A DNA stretch of 64,000 bases from Bryopsis sp. KO-2023 (Eukaryota; Chlorophyta; Ulvophyceae; Bryopsidales; Bryopsidaceae), in the NCBI GenBank assembly GCA_030272585.1, contig BSYQ01000014.1, forward strand, positions 744,001-808,000. The letters run 5' to 3'. Positions within the stretch are counted from its first letter, which is position 1; each line of letters begins with the position of its first letter. Below, in pieces: positions 38,971-58,432 of this stretch. A model generated the notes under the pieces. It made no database searches. It was not told the origin of the DNA and saw nothing but the letters and a program-made list of their open reading frames with translations. Both the position numbers and the translations under genes were made by a program.

Positions 38971-40868
38971 CCTTGAAGAATCTGCAGAATTAAAAAAGCA
39001 AAAAAAACACAGAACACTAAAAAAAGGATGCAATGTTAAAAAAGACTGCATGCCATCAAAGCGATGAGTAAAGAGATGCACGCTGCAAACAAACAAACAA
39101 ACAAACATCAATTACATTGTGTAGGAGAGATATTCTCCTATTACAATGATCAGTAAAAATCAAATGTGACCATGTGTATTTTAATGTTGAAATTCCATTG
39201 GCTTTTGTGTGTACCCACAAAGACACTTGCACGTTGCAACAAGAGGGCGGATTTGCCCCAGCCAACTTGTAATTCCTTTTTCCTATCATGATAGATTGAT
39301 CAAACACAGTTCAATCGAGACCGCATGCTGCATAAAAAACTTCAAGTTTCGTCGTAACCAGACGAGACAAAATTTACGAGGTGTTTTTTTTGCGTCTGTG
39401 GAAAAAATCGCAATCGGGGTCCGTTCAAGTGCTGGCTCCGATCCAAATACGGCTGCTGGAAAACGGCGACTCCACCTTCAAAATTCTTCCTGTCTGTTCG
39501 GAGTTTGCGACGATTGCGCGCTGGGGACTCCAAGGTTCCAGAGGGTGCTATTCGATCAAGCTAGCTAGCTATAGCGGAAGCGCCCGCCACTCCGTTTTGG
39601 TGCTGCGCCTTGGTTTTCTCAGTCACATCGAGCTGGGTGATTGGTGATTCATGAGACTGTGGTTGGCTGGAAAGAGGCGGCCGAGGTTTGGAAACGTTAA
39701 TCGCTCGTTCAGGATCCTGTTGAGGAAAAAATAGTGGCGCTTCCCCGCCGCCGATAATGTGACGACGACGGCTGGGATGCGGTTCCGATGGTGGAGGAGC
39801 AAGAAAATGGATGCATTCGATATTAGCCGTGCGTGGCTTTTGTGTAATTCTCGGGTGAAATGGTGTAAGCTTCGTTCGATGCTGTAGAATGTTCGGCGCT
39901 GTATTGAGCCAGGTTTGAGCCTCTGTGTTCTGAATGCTCCCACGCCGAGCAATCCCGTATTCTCGACACTGGAGCACAATGTATGAAACAGGAGCGCTGT
40001 TTGCCGACTCCCCCGGCAAATACTAGAACAACGAGCCTGTGGGGTGAACAACTTCGAGTCGCACCGCGGTGTGGTGAATTATATTGCGACGGGACCACAC
40101 GGTTTCCCTTTAGTTCGGAGGAGAGGAGCCGCGAAAGCACACCACACTGTGTCCGATAGCTCCTCCACATTGGCCGTGGTTTGGGCTGAAGCGGTACGGA
40201 TTGTACGGCACGTGTATGGGGGTGTGAGCGTTTGAAGCGCATGTTGGACTTCCCATCTTGCGAAGTAGTTGTCAAGTTCATCCAGTCTCCTCTGACGGCC
40301 ATCCTCCACTCACGAAGCTCTCAGGCGTCGCGCGTGGGTCCACGCAAACACCAAGCGTTTCTTTTCTTGTTTCCTGTACTTCGGAGTGACTCGTTTTCTC
40401 CCACGGTCGAGTCCGAAATAAATTTCGCGAGGCGCACGAGGAGAAAAACACGAAATACGAGAGTCGGAGCAGCGTGGCGCTCGGCGCTCTTGGACGCTTT
40501 TTCCGTCTCCTTTGTCGGTAATCCATCCGGATTCGTGGGGTTGGGATTCGCAACTGAATTTTTCCGCGTTGAACGCTGCGTGGGGGAGTTGACGCGTGGT
40601 GTGGCGAATTGTGTGAGAGAGAGGCCAGAACGGGTGCGGTGAGGATACGACGCAGGTTGCGGTAAAAGTGGCAGGGGCGCTTCTCGGGCGGGTTTTGTTG
40701 GAGCGCGCACGACCTCGCCTCGGAGAATGGGCGGTGCGCGGTGTGGTTCTGGCCGACAGCGATTATCAGCGGGTGTTTTATCACTCCAAGTCCAACCCCC
40801 CTTGTAGCCCTAGGAATCTATCATTCACGCGCTCGGGGAGCGGGGACGAACAGGACAACGCAGGGAGA
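38971..40868. other. Divergent intergenic region
   Basis: No gene supported. Contains a CAAA microsatellite ((AAAC)n then ATCAATTAC, 39087-39112) and a GC-rich promoter-like stretch before the kinase. The kinase frame is open back to 40668, but has no ATG there. Confidence 0.5.
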
Positions 40869-42059
40869 ATGTCAGCTTTCGGAGCCGTGACGCGGCTAGC
40901 CCGTCGGGCAGTCAAACAATCGGCCTCTTCTCTACAGGAACTCGCCTCCTCCGGATTGTCGAAAAAACCTGTGTCGGGCGGTTTACCGCCAGACATACGT
41001 GAAGAGATTCTGGAGTACTCGCTTCGCAAACAGACGGGAGTGAGTTTGAAATATATGCTGGATTTCGGGTCGAATCCTATCGAACGCCAGTTCCTGCTGT
41101 CGGCCCAGTTTCTACACAGAGAGTTACCGGTACGCCTGGCGCATCGGGTGGCGGAGTTGGAGAATTTGCCATACGGGCTGTCGTCGAAACCGCAGGTGCT
41201 GCGTGTGCGGGATTGGTATATCGCTTCTTTCCAAGATATCCGTCGCTTCCGCAAAGTGAAAACGGTTGATGACGAGCAAGATTTCACCAAGCTTCTGGAG
41301 GCGATTTACGGACGTCACGGTAACGTCGTACCGTTACTGGCCAGGGGGGTGGCGGAGCTGCGCCAGGAGCTGTCCAGCGAAGTGGGCCTGAACGAACTCC
41401 CTGAGATTCATCAGTTTTTGGATGGTTTCTATTTGAGCAGGATTGGGATTCGAATTCTGATTGGCCAGCACATCGCCCTACATGAACCCCCCAGGGAAAA
41501 CTACATAGGAATGGTTTGCACCAAATGCTCTCCGGTCAAAGTTTCGGAACATGCCATGCTGGATGCCCGAGATGTGTGCATCCGGCAATACGGAAGCGCC
41601 CCGGTCGTCGACATTTACGGCGACCCGAATTTCACGTTCGCTTACATACCTTCCCACATCCATCAAATGGTGTTCGAGCTGGTGAAAAACTCCCTGAGGG
41701 CTGTCCAGGACCGATTCGAGAATTCCGATGTGGAGCCCCCCCCGATTCGACTGGTGGTGGCCGAAGGAGCGGAGGATATCACCATCAAGGTTTCGGACGA
41801 GGGTGGGGGAATCCCTAGGAGCGGTTTGCCTAGAATATGGACGTATTTATACACGACGGCGGATTCCCCTATGGAGCATATCGGGGAGGAGGATCCAGGT
41901 CCGACCGTGTTGGCTGGGTATGGCTATGGGCTCCCGATAAGCAGGCTGTATGCTCGTTATTTTGGGGGTGACCTGCAAGTCATATCGATGCAAGGATTCG
42001 GCACGGATGCTTATTTGCATTTGAATCGATTGGGGAATGTGCAGGAGCCCTTGCCTTGA
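40869..42059 (+). CDS. PDK: Mitochondrial pyruvate dehydrogenase kinase
   Basis: An intronless 396-aa frame from the first in-frame ATG (40869). PDK phosphorylates and inactivates the E1-alpha subunit of the mitochondrial pyruvate dehydrogenase complex, using a GHKL-type ATP-binding fold rather than a Ser/Thr kinase fold. The N-terminal four-helix region carries LLSAQFLHRELPVRLAHR and LENLPYGLSSKP, and FLDGFYLSRIGIRILIGQH. The ATP site shows the N-box ELVKNSLRAVQDRF, the G1-box DEGGGIPRSGLPR and the G2-box GYGYGLPISRLYARYFGG. The C-terminus GTDAYLHLNRLGNVQEPLP is that of plant PDKs. The start MSAFGAVTRLARRAVKQSAS is a fair mitochondrial presequence. The frame extends 67 codons upstream without ATG. 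Lack of introns in an otherwise intron-rich neighbourhood is notable. Confidence 0.95.
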   Translation: MSAFGAVTRLARRAVKQSASSLQELASSGLSKKPVSGGLPPDIREEILEYSLRKQTGVSLKYMLDFGSNPIERQFLLSAQFLHRELPVRLAHRVAELENLPYGLSSKPQVLRVRDWYIASFQDIRRFRKVKTVDDEQDFTKLLEAIYGRHGNVVPLLARGVAELRQELSSEVGLNELPEIHQFLDGFYLSRIGIRILIGQHIALHEPPRENYIGMVCTKCSPVKVSEHAMLDARDVCIRQYGSAPVVDIYGDPNFTFAYIPSHIHQMVFELVKNSLRAVQDRFENSDVEPPPIRLVVAEGAEDITIKVSDEGGGIPRSGLPRIWTYLYTTADSPMEHIGEEDPGPTVLAGYGYGLPISRLYARYFGGDLQVISMQGFGTDAYLHLNRLGNVQEPLP

Positions 42060-50095: not shown

Positions 50096-51094
50096 ATGTT
50101 GTTGCTGCTGGTCGTTTTAGGCGCCTTGGCCACGTGCCAGTCTGCCCACTCCGCTGGTGCGCTTCAGCTTTTGACTGATATTCTGTACACAACCTATCCA
50201 CGGCTAATTATTTTTTTCGCTGTTTCGGACAGAGCCATCGGCAGTGCCGCAGCTTGCTCTTCGCAGATCATTGCTGGAGATCATTGATGAGCCCCCCTGT
50301 AAGTTTGTGATTTAGCTGTGGTCACAGCACTTGCTGGACTGCATGCAAGGCAGCCGCCTCTTTGGTTGAACACGCTCTTGGTTATTCTCCAGGCGAAGAT
50401 GGGCTGCACGACAAGAATGTGAGGTGCCAGCGGGAATGCGGCGGCGGAGAGGTAATCACTTATGAGTCGTCTCGAAGGCAGCAACGATTCGCAAACAATG
50501 GGAATTGCTGTTGAATTTTGACTGAGGGCTGCTTGTCTTCGCCATCCGCAGTGCTCAAGAGCAGCAGAGATAGGGTGCACCTCTGTGACAAGCGCTCCCG
50601 AGAATCGTGAACATTGTCGATGTATCGTTGATGGCGGCGATTCGTCGTGTTGTAGTGGAGAGGTGAAAGAGGAGGGACCCAGTAGTGGATTGAGACGCCA
50701 GTTGGCCAAAAAAAGAAGATACAAGAGGCGTCCATACAACGGGTTGAGGCGTCTTTCAGCCAGAAGAAGGAAAGCACTCCCACCAGGGCCCCAACGAAAG
50801 GAAAACGGGTTGAGGCGTCTTTCAGCCAGAAGAAATGAAAAAGCACTCAGTGGTGGATTGAGACGTCAGTTGGCCAAAAGAAAAAGATACAGGAGAAGGG
50901 GAGGATTGAGGCGTCTTTCAGCCCGAGGAAATGGAAAAGCACTCCCCCCAGGCCCCCAAAGAAAGGAAAACGGGTTGAGGCGTCTTTCAGCCAGAAGAAA
51001 TGGAAAAGCACTCCCCCCAGGCCCCCAAAGAAAGGAAAACGGGTTGAGGCGTCTTTTATCCGGAAAAAAATCGGGCAGAAATGGTGGAGGTTGA
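50096..51094 (+). CDS. Secreted cysteine-rich protein with Arg/Lys-rich tandem repeats (242 aa)
   Basis: Four exons with consistent phases: 50096-50156, 50233-50298, 50393-50451 and 50552-51094. The start MLLLLVVLGALATCQSAHSA is a signal peptide. Residues about 43-100 hold nine cysteines in a short span (C-x10-C-x3-C-x4-C-x7-C-x12-C-x-C-x8-CC), a small disulfide-rich module with no family I can name. The rest is strongly basic and repetitive: units SGLRRQLAK(K/R)(R/K)RY(K/R)RR and NGLRRLSARR(N)GKALPPGPQRK, many with dibasic sites. The repeat unit is 69 bp, a multiple of three, so the frame stays open. The repeats could instead be intronic, since GAG/GTGAAAG just before them is a possible donor. 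Known analogies are repeat-bearing precursor peptides or mineral-binding basic proteins; neither is shown. Confidence 0.55.
50680..51072 (+). repeat. Minisatellite of 69-bp and 50-bp units within the Cys-rich gene
   Basis: A unit starting GGTTGAGGCGTCTTTCAGCC occurs five times (the last diverged), usually with a GGAAAAGCACTCCC...CAGGCCCCCAAAGAAAGG continuation. A second unit with GGATTGAGACG(C/T)CAGTTGGCC occurs twice. The two copies near 50940-51060 are nearly identical, which implies recent duplication or homogenisation. Confidence 0.9.
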
Positions 51095-52458: not shown

Positions 52459-54229
52459 TGAGTGAATGCCAATATGTTTTCATATAAAGTAAATGAATAC
52501 TGGTTCCTGGATCATATCCGAAATCATATTCTCTGAGTGTCATGTTCACCCGATGCCAAACAATAGCATTCTCCATTGAAATGCTTGATTCAGGGAAAAT
52601 CAGCTTTTTTCAAACTGTTGGAAGTATCTTTCTTTGATCCCCCCCCCTCCCCCCCTCCTGCCTTTTTATTTGAGTACAATTAGGTGAAGGAACAGAAAAA
52701 TTGAACACTTCTTGGTGTTGGTGGCCCCTGGTGATTCACCAGTGGTGAATGCTTTCTTTCTTAAAAGCCGTTCATCTGTTGAAAAAGGTGTCAATTGATT
52801 GAAGTGTAAAACATAGCATATGCAGCAGATGGATAATTTATCAATACATGGTGTGATCTTGAGGATGCAAACGCTGAAAGTTTCGGATGGCTTCTCTATG
52901 GCTGACTCACCCCCAATTCAGTCCAGTGGTAAGACAACTCATTGCAGCATTTAGTGTATTGTGATTCAATAACAAGGAATGATAGAAAATGGAATACTTG
53001 TTGAAATTTCTTCATAAAAACTACAAACATGTTTTATTTGGCAGTTTGTTTGGGACACTGTCGTTTCTTTTGCCCTGTTTTTCTTAATCAATCAGGCTAA
53101 ATTGAATGTCAGAGACTTCCACCCTTGTTGATATGGATGTTAAAAAAAACAACATTTGATTTTGGACAAACTGTGCTTGTGATCGGGAGCTGTTTGGGTG
53201 CCAGGCTTTTCGCTTTTTTTTTCCTTCATCGATGGAATTCTATCACTTTGGAAATAGTGATTCCTCCAGTGATTCCGACCCCGTTATTTTCAAGACGTTG
53301 AGGAGAAACAGTCGACACAGTCGCACAGTCGACCCTGCATTTCTTGCAAGGTTTTGATCAGCATCCCAACGCCGCCAGAGCCACTTTGGAAGGCGAAATA
53401 AACGCTCCCCAGACACCATATTTCCTCCCAGACGAGCCGAAGGCCTGGAGTATATTATCGATTCTTAGCAGAACTCATTCTCTCTGGAATTGTTATTTTT
53501 CTTCAAGGAGGTTTTTCTTGTTTCGCTTTTTCAACAAAGGAGGAGTTAACCAGTTCCAGTGCTTCGTTTCGAGCAGACCTCCCGAGTGTGAGGGCTTTAG
53601 TCGTTGTTGGTTCGAGACTGAAAAAATGTTGAACGCGTGGTGTGTTTGGGGATCTGAGACAGGGACGTCGCCATCGATCTGAGCCATGAAGTCGAAAAAC
53701 TTCCCACCCGAACAGGTCGGTTTTGTTACGGCCACTGCAACAGGTTTCGACTCTCGCTTAAGAAACGGCAAGTCGCAAACACAGTCGGCGAAACCATCGA
53801 CGCGTTCGAGCCGACGAACCGTTCGATAGCACCCACGAAAAAAAAAGAGCACCCGACAACGAAAACGCGGAGGAGGAGAAGCGTTGAAACATGCGATCCC
53901 ACGGATCGGGGAAGCGGATGATCCCGCTAATCGTGTCTCTCCCTTCAAACATGCAAAGTTCCACGGAAACTCGAAAAACACAAGGAGGAAAAACATTTAT
54001 GATTACACGTCGAGCGGAGTTTTCCGTTAGAGTTACACTGAACCGACGTCCCGCGCCTAGTGCCGGGATTAGCGCCCACCAAGTCCCTAGGGGGAGGTGT
54101 CGGTGACGTGTAATCTTCCCCGCCGAGAGAGGCTTTGAGCGGGTCTATTGGCTCGTGCGCGGGGGTGCGACCCGGACGCGTTGTCGTTCCGGGAGCGGGT
54201 AATCTCGGCGGGGTTGATACCGGTTGAAG

Positions 54230-54278
54230 TTCTTTTTCCCGCTTCCATTAGGGGTTTTTCTCTTCTTAAAAAGAAAAA
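54230..54278 (+). ncRNA. MALAT1/ENE-like triple-helix module A
   Basis: U-rich strand 1 is TTCTTTTT (54230-54237). A hairpin CCC (54238-54240), 10-nt loop, GGGG (54251-54254) follows. U-rich strand 2 is TTTTTCT (54255-54261), and the A-rich tract AAAAAGAAAAA is 54268-54278. Strand 2 is the exact antiparallel Watson-Crick complement of AGAAAAA, while strand 1 reads TTCTTTTT parallel to AAGAAAAA, so seven stacked triples form: six U.A-U and one C+.G-C. This order (U-rich, stem-loop, U-rich, A-rich) is that of ENE+A elements that protect RNA 3' ends. The fold is my reading of the sequence; no energy calculation was done. Confidence 0.6.
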
Positions 54279-54328
54279 GGCGATTCGTCGACGGGACGAT
54301 CATAGGGGTTCGAATCCCCTAACCGCCA
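54279..54328 (+). ncRNA. tRNA-like structure A
   Basis: The acceptor arm pairs GGCGATT (54279-54285) with AACCGCC (54321-54327), one mismatch. A small hairpin CGTC-GACGG-GACG follows, then ATCAT and a canonical T-arm AGGGG-TTCGAAT-CCCCT (54304-54320). The total is only about 50 nt, with no D-arm/anticodon-arm pair, so it is not a normal tRNA. It abuts the A-rich tract exactly as mascRNA abuts the MALAT1 A-tract, where RNase P cleaves. Confidence 0.62.
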
Positions 54329-55933: not shown

Positions 55934-58184
55934 ATGGGTGGTTGGGAGGGTCTGGACTTGGATAGCATATCACAGAACTACGTTGCCAACAGGAAGGGGT
56001 TTGGGGAATATTTTTCCCTTGTTGTAAGTTGCTTTTATCCCACTGGAGTGTCTTCCTTTAACAAACTAGTGTTTGCAAGTGGAACCGTCAATTCTCTGTC
56101 GGAGGAGAGGTAAAAAAAGATTTTTTTTTTTTTTTTTTGATTTTTTTTTCTGAAATCATCGAGGGGCTGATTAATATGGAAAGCAACTCATAAATAATAT
56201 TTGGTTCAAAAACGCTGACCTGAATCTTACAACTCGTGAAAGATGTTTTTCAGACGGAAAGCAACAAAAAGGAAACCAGCCAAGACTTATTGTGTTTCTG
56301 AAAATGTCAGACTACTTGGAGGGCGGAAAACTGCTTGAGTTCAACAGTACGCCCATGGGCATGTACATGTTACTTTATGTTCGTCCGTTGGGATGCAATT
56401 TTGATCCACAGTAGTTTGATAGATAGTTCAGAAATATCTTCAATATCTTTGTAGATTGAAGTGGCATGGTGCATGAGCAAAGTGATACTGGAGGAGTTGT
56501 CATTTGTCATTTTTTTTAATTTGGTATTTGTTATCGGTTGGAAGTCCATGCATCCTTGGTGGAGATTTGAGGAAGTCATCCCAGTTCACAGTGGGAAACT
56601 GTCCGTGACAAGAGGAATGCAACTCTTCCAGAAACTGTCATTGCCAGAAACTGTCTCGGCTATTTAAGCTCAGTCGTCTCAGTCGTCATCACCTGCGACC
56701 GAACACCCAAAGATGAGTGTTCAACTGTGCAACCTGTGCAAGGTGGTATCAGTAGTACTACCGACAGCTCTTTGCGTTAAGGTGTGTATTGACCTCCTCT
56801 TTCTTACGGTTGTCGGAGCCAGTGTAACACTCTTGTCGACGCTTGATGCTTCAATAACCACTTCTATTCATGCTTGCAGAAAGCAATCGGGAAGATCAAA
56901 GCAAGAAGAAGGTCTTCTCGACGACAGAATGGGCCTATAATCGAGGCTGGGGTCCAACTTGATCAGGCGCCGGCATCACAAGGGGCCAGTGTTTCTGAAA
57001 GTCTCTCCCTTGTGAGAGTCCGTCTTGGAGACGATCGGCAGCCCTCTGATGTCCGACATATCCTTCCTGCCCCTGGGAGGTTCTTGCGTCCTGGTTCCAC
57101 GCCTCGTGAAAACGGTGGAATTGTGGCACTCCCCAAGATGGCTGCTTTGGTGAGTGATTGTGATGCTCACACTCATACTGATTCCAATCTCGCAATTGCA
57201 GGCTGTTAAACTTTGTAGAGATTTTCCAAGCACCAGTGAACTTTTGAGCACAAATCTATATTGTGGTTAGGGTGACATACAGATTGGCTCGCTGGATAAA
57301 GATCGAAACATCAGTATTCTAATCGATCCGGATGTTTTTTTCCGAGCTTTGGCATCAACTGTGGGAACTGATGGGTCCATGAGGTGAGTAAGCCACTTAA
57401 AATGTGTCTGTGTTGTGGATACAGTTCTTTCTGAGTTGTTTGAGAAAAACAGCACTTCGTCAAAATGTGGCTTTGCTTTCAGTGCTACATTCCCAGTCAA
57501 ACCTCATACCTTTGAGTGAAAGTCGAAGCACCCAACAAATAAGCTTTTTGTTCAAAACGCAGGTCTCTTTTTGTTGACATGATGTCTCGATTCGGAGTGG
57601 ACAAGGAGCTCATGGAAAGTATGATATCGAGGCTTCCAGGGAAGTTTTTTACCAAACAAAGTGGCAAGTATTATCTCGAAGGAATCGGGAATGTTTGCAT
57701 TGACGGCGACAACCTCTGCGAGACCGACAACGCACACAGGCGGCGGAACAGGGGAAAAAGGAGCACTTTTTTATCTACCAGTCGAGTAGGGGAACAACAC
57801 GTTTGCCACCCCCTTGGGAAAATGAAGGTTGAAGAACCCCTCACATTTTTGCTACCCAAGTTTGTGAGTTTTGCAATTGCAAGCGAGACTGTCGGTAGTG
57901 GACGACAACGGATGCGGATCTCGGACACACCTGGTGGAATCGTCACGGGGAATGGTGTTCGCAGAGAACCCGGAGAAGTTAATCGTCCAGAGGATATACA
58001 TCCAAACTTCAATCAATCGATCAATGATCAAAACCTTCTTCGACCAAGGGGGGGGAGCCACGATTCTGATATGAATTTGGATCATCACCGTGATGACCAG
58101 CCCACGAGAACGCTCTGGGGAAGAATCAACGCTGTCCCGTTTATTTGCTTGGGTTGGGGTTTTCTTTTGGAATATACTTTTTAG
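55934..58184 (+). CDS. Hypothetical protein (about 364 aa) upstream of triple-helix module B
   Basis: Four exons chain in phase: 55934-56023, 56880-57149, 57271-57383 and 57563-58184. The best-supported part is the third/fourth exon join, ILIDPDVFFRALASTVG...GSMR/SLFVDMMSRFGVDKELMESM, followed by RLPGKFFTKQSGKYYLEGIG; it looks like a folded alpha/beta domain, but I do not know the family. An Arg-rich linker (HRRRNRGKR) and a disordered polar tail follow. The stop at 58182-58184 is about 165 nt upstream of the second triple-helix/tRNA-like element, so that element would sit in this gene's 3' UTR if transcription continues. Whether the first exon belongs to the gene is uncertain. Confidence 0.55.
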
Positions 58185-58349
58185 CTAAATATAAACGTAC
58201 ATATTAGGAAAAAAAAAGCAACAAAAAAAAAAAGAAAAAGCAAAAAAAAAAAAAAAAAACTTGTGGGGAGTGTTTGTGTTACTTACTTATTTGTGCATGT
58301 ATATATGATAAAAAACCATTTCAGGGGTAAATAGGGGTATAATTAGGAG

Positions 58350-58385
58350 TTTCTTTCCTTCGGGTTTCTTTTCTCTAAAAAGAAA
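58350..58385 (+). ncRNA. MALAT1/ENE-like triple-helix module B
   Basis: U-rich strand 1 TTTCTTT (58350-58356); hairpin CC-TTCG-GG (58357-58364), a stable UUCG tetraloop; U-rich strand 2 TTTCTTTT (58365-58372); A-rich tract AAAAAGAAA (58377-58385). Strand 2 pairs antiparallel with AAAGAAA and strand 1 lies parallel to it, giving seven triples: three U.A-U, one C+.G-C, three U.A-U. The C sits after three T in both U-strands here and after five T in module A, so the two copies differ in a coordinated way. Confidence 0.6.
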
Positions 58386-58432
58386 AAGGCAAGTGATTGG
58401 ACTGTCCATGGGGTTCGATCCCCCTATGCCTT
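58386..58432 (+). ncRNA. tRNA-like structure B
   Basis: AAGGCA (58386-58391) pairs perfectly with TGCCTT (58427-58432). Inside are a short hairpin TGGA-CTG-TCCA (58398-58408) and a T-arm GGGG-TTCGATC-CCCC (58410-58424). The element directly follows the A-rich tract. Its sequence outside the T-arm differs from structure A, so conservation is of shape rather than of bases. No T-run terminator follows. Confidence 0.6.

What the first reader, a model, noticed from the sequence alone, without database searches (positions are those of the whole stretch)
54230..54328. MALAT1-type triple helix plus tRNA-like 3' end in a green-lineage genome (copy A)
The sequence gives, in order, a U-rich strand, a GC hairpin, a second U-rich strand, an A-rich tract and an abutting 50-nt tRNA-like fold with a perfect T-arm. 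The three strands align as seven consecutive base triples including a C+.G-C. This is the 3'-end design of vertebrate MALAT1 and MEN-beta, where the triplex blocks decay and RNase P releases the small tRNA-like RNA. ENE triplexes are known in plant and fungal transposon RNAs near poly(A) tails, but I know of no green alga with a genomically encoded A-tract followed by a tRNA-like structure.
Basis: partly seen in the sequence, partly recalled or inferred. Interest (0 to 1): 0.93.

Follow-up and report, generated by a model that had tools for sequence, protein, structure and literature searches.

The report
MALAT1-type RNA ends in green alga
A green alga's genome carries dozens of copies of an RNA ending built like that of the vertebrate RNA MALAT1 (a triple helix next to a small tRNA-like piece), on several unrelated RNAs and on one family of protein-coding genes, suggesting a second way to finish RNAs without an added poly(A) tail.

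Summary
At 54226-54328 a U-rich strand, a hairpin, a mirror-image U-rich strand and an encoded A-tract end exactly at the 5' end of a 49-nt tRNA-like fold. A covariance model built without this RNA's own family finds the tRNA-like at E 5.8e-17 (rough E-value). Scanning both strands of the window, runs of seven strict triples end at 4 of 25,748 positions tested; two are the 5' ends of the window's two tRNA-likes, 54279 and a second module at 58346-58432. About 60 loci of six module types (A-F) carry the tRNA-like. In A, E and F the U-run and A-run lengths agree in 31 of 32 loci scored, including a concerted change inside F. In four paralogous protein-coding genes the module starts 13-14 nt after the stop codon. 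The tRNA-like covaries. A protein-only RNase P is encoded. Best reading: RNase P cleavage leaves a triplex-capped, poly(A)-independent 3' end, as in MALAT1, used here as a general module. Against it: 18 of 32 loci lack the C+.G-C triple, types B-D have weak or no triplex, no RNA data.

The parts
53982..54278 (+). Conserved body of the A-type non-coding RNA (start approximate; mature 3' end predicted at 54278)
   Evidence: Alignment of copies; identity to the window copy per 40 nt 0.89-0.99 over 53960-54319; no reading frame favoured, by inspection of the tblastn output
54043..54103 (+). 61-nt core shared by RNA types A and B
   Evidence: 82-84% identity to B loci over 59-66 nt; alignment
54226..54229 (+). 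Outer stem, 5' strand GAAG (pairs with CUUC 54262-54265)
   Evidence: Sequence; other types have GAG/CUC, CCAG/CUGG or GGGAG/CUCCC at the same place (by eye)
54230..54237 (+). U-rich strand 1, UUCUUUUU (predicted Hoogsteen strand)
   Evidence: mirror image of strand 2 in 6 of 6 families that have a C in strand 1
54238..54254 (+). Inner hairpin CCCGCUUCCAUUAGGGG
54255..54261 (+). U-rich strand 2, UUUUUCU (predicted Watson-Crick strand)
   Evidence: U-run length equals A-run length in 8 of 8 families and in 5 of 5 F loci
54262..54265 (+). Outer stem, 3' strand CUUC
54268..54278 (+). Genome-encoded A-tract AAAAAGAAAAA, predicted mature 3' end
   Evidence: triplex flush with 54278|54279
54279..54328 (+). 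tRNA-like fold: acceptor, short D-like hairpin with GG, T-arm, discriminator base
   Evidence: Held-out model E 5.8e-17; covariation over 24 sequences
58346..58385 (+). Second module in the window (E1): GAG / UUUCUUU / CCUUCGGG / UUUCUUUU / CUC, A-tract AAAAAGAAA ending at 58385
58386..58432 (+). tRNA-like of the second module (acceptor AAGGCAA/AUGCCUU, 6 of 7 pairs)

Best explanation
A 3'-end-forming module. The primary transcript runs through the hairpin, A-tract and tRNA-like. RNase P (here most likely the protein-only enzyme) recognises the acceptor/T-arm/elbow mimic and cuts 5' of the tRNA-like, at 54278|54279 and at 58385|58386. The new 3'-terminal A-tract folds back between the two U-strands as a flush triple helix, which hides the end from exonucleases and replaces a poly(A) tail; the tRNA-like is released as a small RNA, probably trimmed by RNase Z. 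Shown here: sequence, covariation of the tRNA-like, matched strand lengths, recurrence on unrelated transcripts, a near-fixed place after the stop codon in one gene family, and a PRORP gene. Inferred: transcription, cleavage, stability, absence of poly(A).
For: tRNA-like over types A-D (24 sequences): 97.4% of cells paired, 33 cells changed on both sides and covariation score 0.320, each reached by 0 of 500 shuffles; 8 of 16 pairs with changes on both sides (1 of 500); slid versions pair at most 54.2%. Held-out model. Triplex: number of U between inner stem and C in strand 2 equals number of A between G and the tRNA-like in 8 of 8 families (1 of 280 arrangements), and strand 1 equals strand 2 in 6 of 6 families with a C there (1 of 60); U and A strands of the same family give a mean run of 7.0 triples, swapped families 4.4. 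Type F, found by a pattern that does not mention the U-strands: 5 of 5 loci agree, 4/4 in four and 3/3 in L099. A tRNA-like pattern that says nothing of the U-strands hit 14 places against 0 for its reversed control, and 14 of 14 carry both U-strands and the inner hairpin. Flush 7-triple runs at exactly the two tRNA-like starts in the window. In four C6 genes the outer stem begins 13-14 nt after the stop; over 22 codons the most divergent paralog differs by 11-13 synonymous and 0-1 non-synonymous codons. GG invariant in the D-like loop of A2, as described for mascRNA/menRNA. PRORP domain, E 6.4e-38, above the curated cut-off.
Against: No RNA evidence of any kind. 18 of 32 A/E/F loci lack the strict C+.G-C triple (U.G-C instead: 8 of 12 A, 5 of 15 E, 5 of 5 F). 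One A copy, L009, has a U-run of 6 by plain count against 5 A; the script gave 5 because it let the last hairpin base be T. The expressions were written after looking at the loci. Type B can make only 2-3 triples, and in C and D I could define none (by eye). In one search the number of further pair types does not exceed shuffles (17 against a mean of 17.0; 359 of 500 as high). Within E the tRNA-like covariation is weak (cells paired 22 of 500, covariation score 18 of 500, pairs changed on both sides 300 of 500). The families may share descent, so the arrangement odds are not true probabilities. Minimum-energy folds of the window copies do not show the triplex-competent hairpin intact. RNase P RNA was not found, but nothing rang in the controls either. 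No second genome was available.
Confidence: 0.8

Rival explanations
1. Only the tRNA-like is functional: a small RNA gene of its own, read by RNA polymerase III from its B-box-like T-arm; the T- and A-tracts are low-complexity sequence or terminators.
For: The T-arm GGTTCGAATCC resembles a B box (recalled); T-runs follow the tRNA-like in A and B; the tRNA-like is kept in C and D where I see no clear triplex.
Against: No A-box-like D arm (by eye; motif recalled); conservation extends about 350 nt upstream in A; strand lengths are matched across the U and A tracts; T-runs inside the module should stop polymerase III (recalled); near-fixed spacing after a stop codon.
Confidence: 0.07
2. Transposon 3' ends: the module is the tail of a retroelement family, like the ENE elements of plant and fungal transposon RNAs, spread by copying.
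For: Many copies in clusters on several chromosomes, both strands; [quoted passage not shown]
Against: Upstream sequences of the types look unrelated to each other apart from the 61-nt core of A and B (by eye; the E1 query matched L079, L080 and L081 only over the module); in A the shared unit is one RNA gene plus about 1 kb upstream; one host is a conserved protein-coding exon family with near-constant spacing. Target-site duplications and element proteins were not searched for around the modules.
Confidence: 0.07
3. The A-tract makes an ordinary duplex with one U-strand, not a triplex.
For: Minimum-energy folds pair the A-tract with one U-strand; strand 1 lacks the C in 18 of 32 loci.
Against: A duplex needs only one U-strand; here both are kept, as mirror images about the inner stem in 6 of 6 families with C in strand 1, and the register ends flush with the tRNA-like at two different acceptor offsets (A against E and F).
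Confidence: 0.06

Closest known systems
Vertebrate MALAT1 and NEAT1 (MEN-beta) 3' ends with mascRNA/menRNA
   Same: Order of parts; encoded A-tract; two U-rich strands around a stem; flush abutment of triplex and tRNA-like; tRNA-like with acceptor, small D-like loop with GG, and T-arm.
   Different: Green alga; about 60 loci on several unrelated RNAs, one host gene family protein-coding; tRNA-like of about 47-50 nt; probably protein-only RNase P; no Rfam match. PMC10869381 (passages) places MALAT1 in jawed vertebrates; PMC12941219 (abstract and passages) calls MALAT1 and NEAT1 the only lncRNAs using tRNA-processing machinery.
ENE triplex elements of plant and fungal transposon RNAs (and viral PAN RNA, recalled)
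   Same: Outer stem, U-rich internal loop, inner stem, A-strand (anatomy recalled).
   Different: There the A-strand is the RNA's own poly(A) tail (PMC12501189, abstract in listing and passages); here it is encoded and followed by a tRNA-like.
Plant mitochondrial t-elements (tRNA-like structures cut by PRORP at mRNA ends)
   Same: tRNA-like used as an mRNA processing signal (recalled; listings only).
   Different: Megabase nuclear-type contigs here, with a triplex.

Membership tests
MALAT1/MEN-beta-type 3' end | Two U-rich strands flanking a stem, able to form consecutive triples with an encoded A-tract | tested here: met
MALAT1/MEN-beta-type 3' end | C+.G-C triple interrupting the U.A-U triples | tested here: inconclusive
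   Present in 14 of 32 loci, the window's two modules among them; U.G-C in 18
MALAT1/MEN-beta-type 3' end | tRNA-like directly 3' of the A-tract | tested here: met
MALAT1/MEN-beta-type 3' end | RNase P cleavage, no poly(A) tail, stability of the cut RNA | not testable with these tools
   No RNA data; a PRORP gene exists
Homologue of vertebrate MALAT1/mascRNA | Match to an Rfam family at its curated score | tested here: not met
   No Rfam match at gathering score in the window; so it works like MALAT1 but is not filed as a homologue
Retrotransposon ENE | A-strand is the RNA's added poly(A) tail | tested here: not met
   A-tract is encoded and ends at a tRNA-like
Retrotransposon ENE | Lies in a transposon RNA | tested here: inconclusive
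   One host is a conserved protein-coding exon family; element proteins and target-site duplications not searched for

The most novel reading that the evidence does not exclude
This alga has a dedicated poly(A)-independent pathway of 3'-end formation for nuclear mRNAs as well as non-coding RNAs: protein-only RNase P cuts at a tRNA-like and the encoded A-tract caps itself as a triple helix. It arose independently of vertebrate MALAT1 and serves many unrelated transcripts.
Probability: 0.6. Interest if true: 0.94.

Novelty: new variant of a known kind. Interest (0 to 1): 0.88.

Why it matters
The MALAT1-type 3' end is described in the papers whose passages I read as a vertebrate peculiarity of two lncRNAs. 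Finding the same architecture on many unrelated transcripts of a green alga, with one protein-coding gene family among them, would make it a general solution evolved at least twice, would give protein-only RNase P a role in nuclear mRNA maturation, and offers many natural variants in which triplex rules can be tested.

Tried and rejected
Rejected or unproductive: Rfam families (nothing at threshold; a sub-threshold tRNA match lies exactly on the tRNA-like of the window and of L041). Phage, viral and prokaryotic collections (none at those settings; one search gave 3 viral contigs, in which model R1 found nothing at E 0.1 or better). Coding reading of the A-type RNA: similar tblastn hits in frames of both strands (inspection, not a formal test). 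Coding reading of the window's E1 ORF 57543-58184: codon comparison with paralog L082 was rich in non-synonymous changes (15-17 of 34 codons in three stretches), and no Pfam match, so I do not claim it as an mRNA. Pattern controls: one search gave 47 hits against 24 for the reversed pattern (32 with no mismatch, 9 with one, 6 with two); one search gave 33 against 7, of which 23 are known A or E loci and 10 were not fetched; one search gave 36 against 5: 10 A, 15 E, 5 F and 6 others, of which L102-L105 lack the module and 2 were not fetched (C4:577816, C4:6952030). L074 and L076 score with model R1 but I saw no U-strand hairpin; L077 does not score. Left out of counts: L020 (insert inside the module) from the triplex table; from alignment A2, 3 of 13 A, 9 of 17 B (and 2 fragments), 1 of 6 C and 3 of 4 D loci. 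C14:854524 is an A-type upstream fragment with no 3' module beside it.

Full report
WHERE IT IS. The window is C14:744001-808000 of a 91-Mb, 28-contig genome. The BCDHK/PDK-like protein encoded at 40617-42059 has its best named matches in Chlorophyta, about 70% identity (Myrmecia, Coccomyxa, Ostreobium), so this is a green alga with no close named relative in that search. The species is not identified.

THE OBSERVATION. Reading: outer stem GAAG (54226-54229) with CUUC (54262-54265); U-strand 1 UUCUUUUU (54230-54237); hairpin 54238-54254; U-strand 2 UUUUUCU (54255-54261); A-tract AAAAAGAAAAA (54268-54278); tRNA-like 54279-54327 plus discriminator 54328. Seven strict consecutive triples, one C+.G-C, end flush at 54278|54279. 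Energy folding alone would have missed it (z -1.23; Rfam tRNA 18.3 bits against a threshold of 29).

COPIES OF THE WINDOW TYPE (A). Thirteen copies on C14, C12, C9 and C6. L010, L019 and L020 carry inserted sequence. Identity to the window copy among the 9 other copies is 0.89-0.99 per 40 nt from 53960 to 54319, then 0.61 and 0.45 (still further out the extracted stretches end): the conserved unit ends with the tRNA-like. About 1 kb upstream (52560-53520) is also shared by several copies, less strongly. tblastn hits occur in frames of both strands, so nothing points to coding (by inspection). In one search the acceptor pairs 7 of 7 (wobbles included) in 10 of the 11 other A copies listed; the window copy and L010 pair 6 of 7.

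OTHER LOCI WITH THE SAME 3' TRNA-LIKE. B: ten loci L037-L046 found through the 61-nt core, seven more copies and two fragments (L063 and L064 have damaged tRNA-likes), ending in CGAGAG-U(4-6)-CC(C)-UUCG-(G)GG-UU-CUCUCG, an A-tract, and GGCAAUU...AAUUGCC; L037 has the hairpin twice. C: five loci L067-L071, and a C-like L075, whose upstream sequence is A-rich repeats. D: four sites, C4:6298545, 6328700, 5894978 and 5895473. E: fifteen loci in seven groups by upstream sequence: E1 window 58.4 kb with L010, L082, L083; E2 L079; E3 L080; E4 L081, L088, L089, L090; E5 L084, L085; E6 L086, L091; E7 L087. F: five loci L097-L101. This makes 60 loci, damaged ones included; the genome search says that repeat counts are lower bounds. 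A and B share the core; the other types look unrelated upstream, by eye.

COVARIATION OF THE TRNA-LIKE. Over 24 sequences (alignment A2: 10 of 13 A, 8 of 17 B, 5 of 6 C, 1 of 4 D), 97.4% of cells pair, 33 cells change on both sides, and 0 of 500 shuffles reach the pairing, cell and covariation values; 8 of 16 pairs change on both sides (1 of 500); the number of further pair types is no better than shuffles (359 of 500); slid versions pair at most 54.2%. For E alone (10 sequences) 92.5% pair, with weak shuffle support (22, 300, 11, 326 and 18 of 500 for the five measures) and slid versions at most 65.8%. A model from 14 B, C and D sequences (A4) finds window 54271-54328 at 77.4 bits, E 5.8e-17, and 58380-58431 at 25.7 bits, E 3.9e-4; the next match is E 0.028. 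Two G of the D-like loop are invariant in A2 and present in E by eye; structural work on mascRNA/menRNA says two conserved D-loop guanosines build the elbow that RNase P and RNase Z recognise (PMC11693755, passages).

THE TRIPLEX. Counting U between the inner stem and the C in strand 2, and A between the G and the tRNA-like 5' end, gives 5/5 in A, 3/3 in E1, E2, E4 and 4/4 in E3, E5, E6, E7: 8 of 8 families agree (1 of 280 arrangements). Strand 1, where it has a C, agrees with strand 2 in 6 of 6 families (1 of 60). Same-family U and A strands give a mean run of 7.0 triples (U.G-C allowed), swapped families 4.4. Locus by locus 26 of 27 A and E loci agree by plain count; L009 has six U against five A and was scored as five because the expression let the last hairpin base be T. 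Type F was found later by a pattern that does not mention the U-strands; 5 of 5 loci agree, 4/4 in L097, L098, L100, L101 and 3/3 in L099, a concerted change inside one type. The expressions were written after reading the loci. The A-type register ends at an acceptor that starts GGCG, the E and F registers at an acceptor that starts AAGGCA two bases earlier; in both the triplex is flush with the predicted cut. Scanning both strands of the window, 4 of 25,748 positions tested reach seven strict triples; two are 54278 and 58385, the others 42761 (+) and 6288 (-). These odds assume independent families, which shared descent may break. Against: strand 1 lacks the C in 8 of 12 A, 5 of 15 E and 5 of 5 F loci, so 18 of 32 loci have U.G-C; B offers 2-3 triples; in C and D I could define none (by eye).

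MRNAS. In L081, L088, L089 and L090 a coding exon that follows a pyrimidine-rich AG splice acceptor (by eye) ends in ...DDSDDSGMSFSP[ED]KIRLRRAMK... and a stop; reading the gap strings, the outer stem begins 13 nt (L081, L090) or 14 nt (L088, L089) later and U-strand 1 17-18 nt later (the script prints 17-19 because it looks for eight T). Over the 22 codons of that stretch the divergent L090 differs from the other three by 11-13 synonymous and 0-1 non-synonymous codons. So in this gene family the module makes up nearly all of the predicted 3' UTR. L087 may be another mRNA (a predicted protein C-terminus about 330 nt upstream, by eye). I do not claim the window's E1 ORF as coding.

ENZYME. One PRORP (protein-only RNase P) match, C4:4591031-4591696, E 6.4e-38, above the curated cut-off; none of 14 control genomes rang. 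Nuclear RNase P RNA was not found, but that search also rang in no control genome and shows nothing.

LITERATURE. Nine searches of the held library were answered (one search failed). Among the rows listed (4 to 20 per search, of up to 118 papers), judged by titles and abstract starts, I saw no MALAT1-type 3' end outside vertebrates. PMC12941219 (abstract and passages) calls MALAT1 and NEAT1 the only lncRNAs using tRNA-processing machinery; PMC10869381 (passages) places MALAT1 in jawed vertebrates; PMC12501189 (passages) tells of around 200 ENE motifs, mostly from plants and fungi and tied to LTR retrotransposons. PMC10855403 and PMC10226581 (passages) added nothing decisive. Most subscription papers and preprints are not held, so absence in print is not proven. 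That U.G-C triples can be tolerated is recalled and was not checked.

VERDICT. Real, not chance, and broader than reported: a MALAT1-type, poly(A)-independent 3'-end module (function inferred) used on several unrelated RNAs of a green alga. It works like MALAT1; nothing indicates homology with it.

Noticed in passing
window 58346-58432 (+): Second complete module (E1), co-duplicated with the A-type RNA at C14:840-845 kb (locus L010).
   Followed up: yes
L010, L019, L020: A-type copies interrupted by inserted sequence of roughly 300-460 nt; in L010 the insert is flanked by about 10 repeated bases.
   Followed up: partly
L037, about 1694-1771: The U-rich hairpin with its A-rich linker is present twice in tandem before the tRNA-like.
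   Followed up: no
L067-L071: Type C loci are preceded by A-rich repeats of a unit like AATTTAAGGGATTTTAACTCTGA, a different kind of RNA with the same 3' tRNA-like.
   Followed up: no
L078: Two D-type modules in an inverted arrangement, nearly palindromic over about 680 bases.
   Followed up: no
L097-L101: Type F loci share conserved, possibly structured sequence upstream of the module; nature unknown.
   Followed up: no
L102 and L103: Two near-identical tRNA-like-looking stretches on C10 without a U-strand hairpin.
   Followed up: partly
window 54043-54103: A 61-nt core strongly conserved between types A and B, with a possible CCUAG/CUAGG loop-loop pairing (by eye; not kept in the A copies that read CUUCGG); function unknown.
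   Followed up: partly
window 50666-51082: Minisatellite-like array with spacings of 66-96 bases.
   Followed up: no
window 40617-42059 (+): Pyruvate/branched-chain dehydrogenase kinase gene used to place the organism in Chlorophyta.
   Followed up: yes
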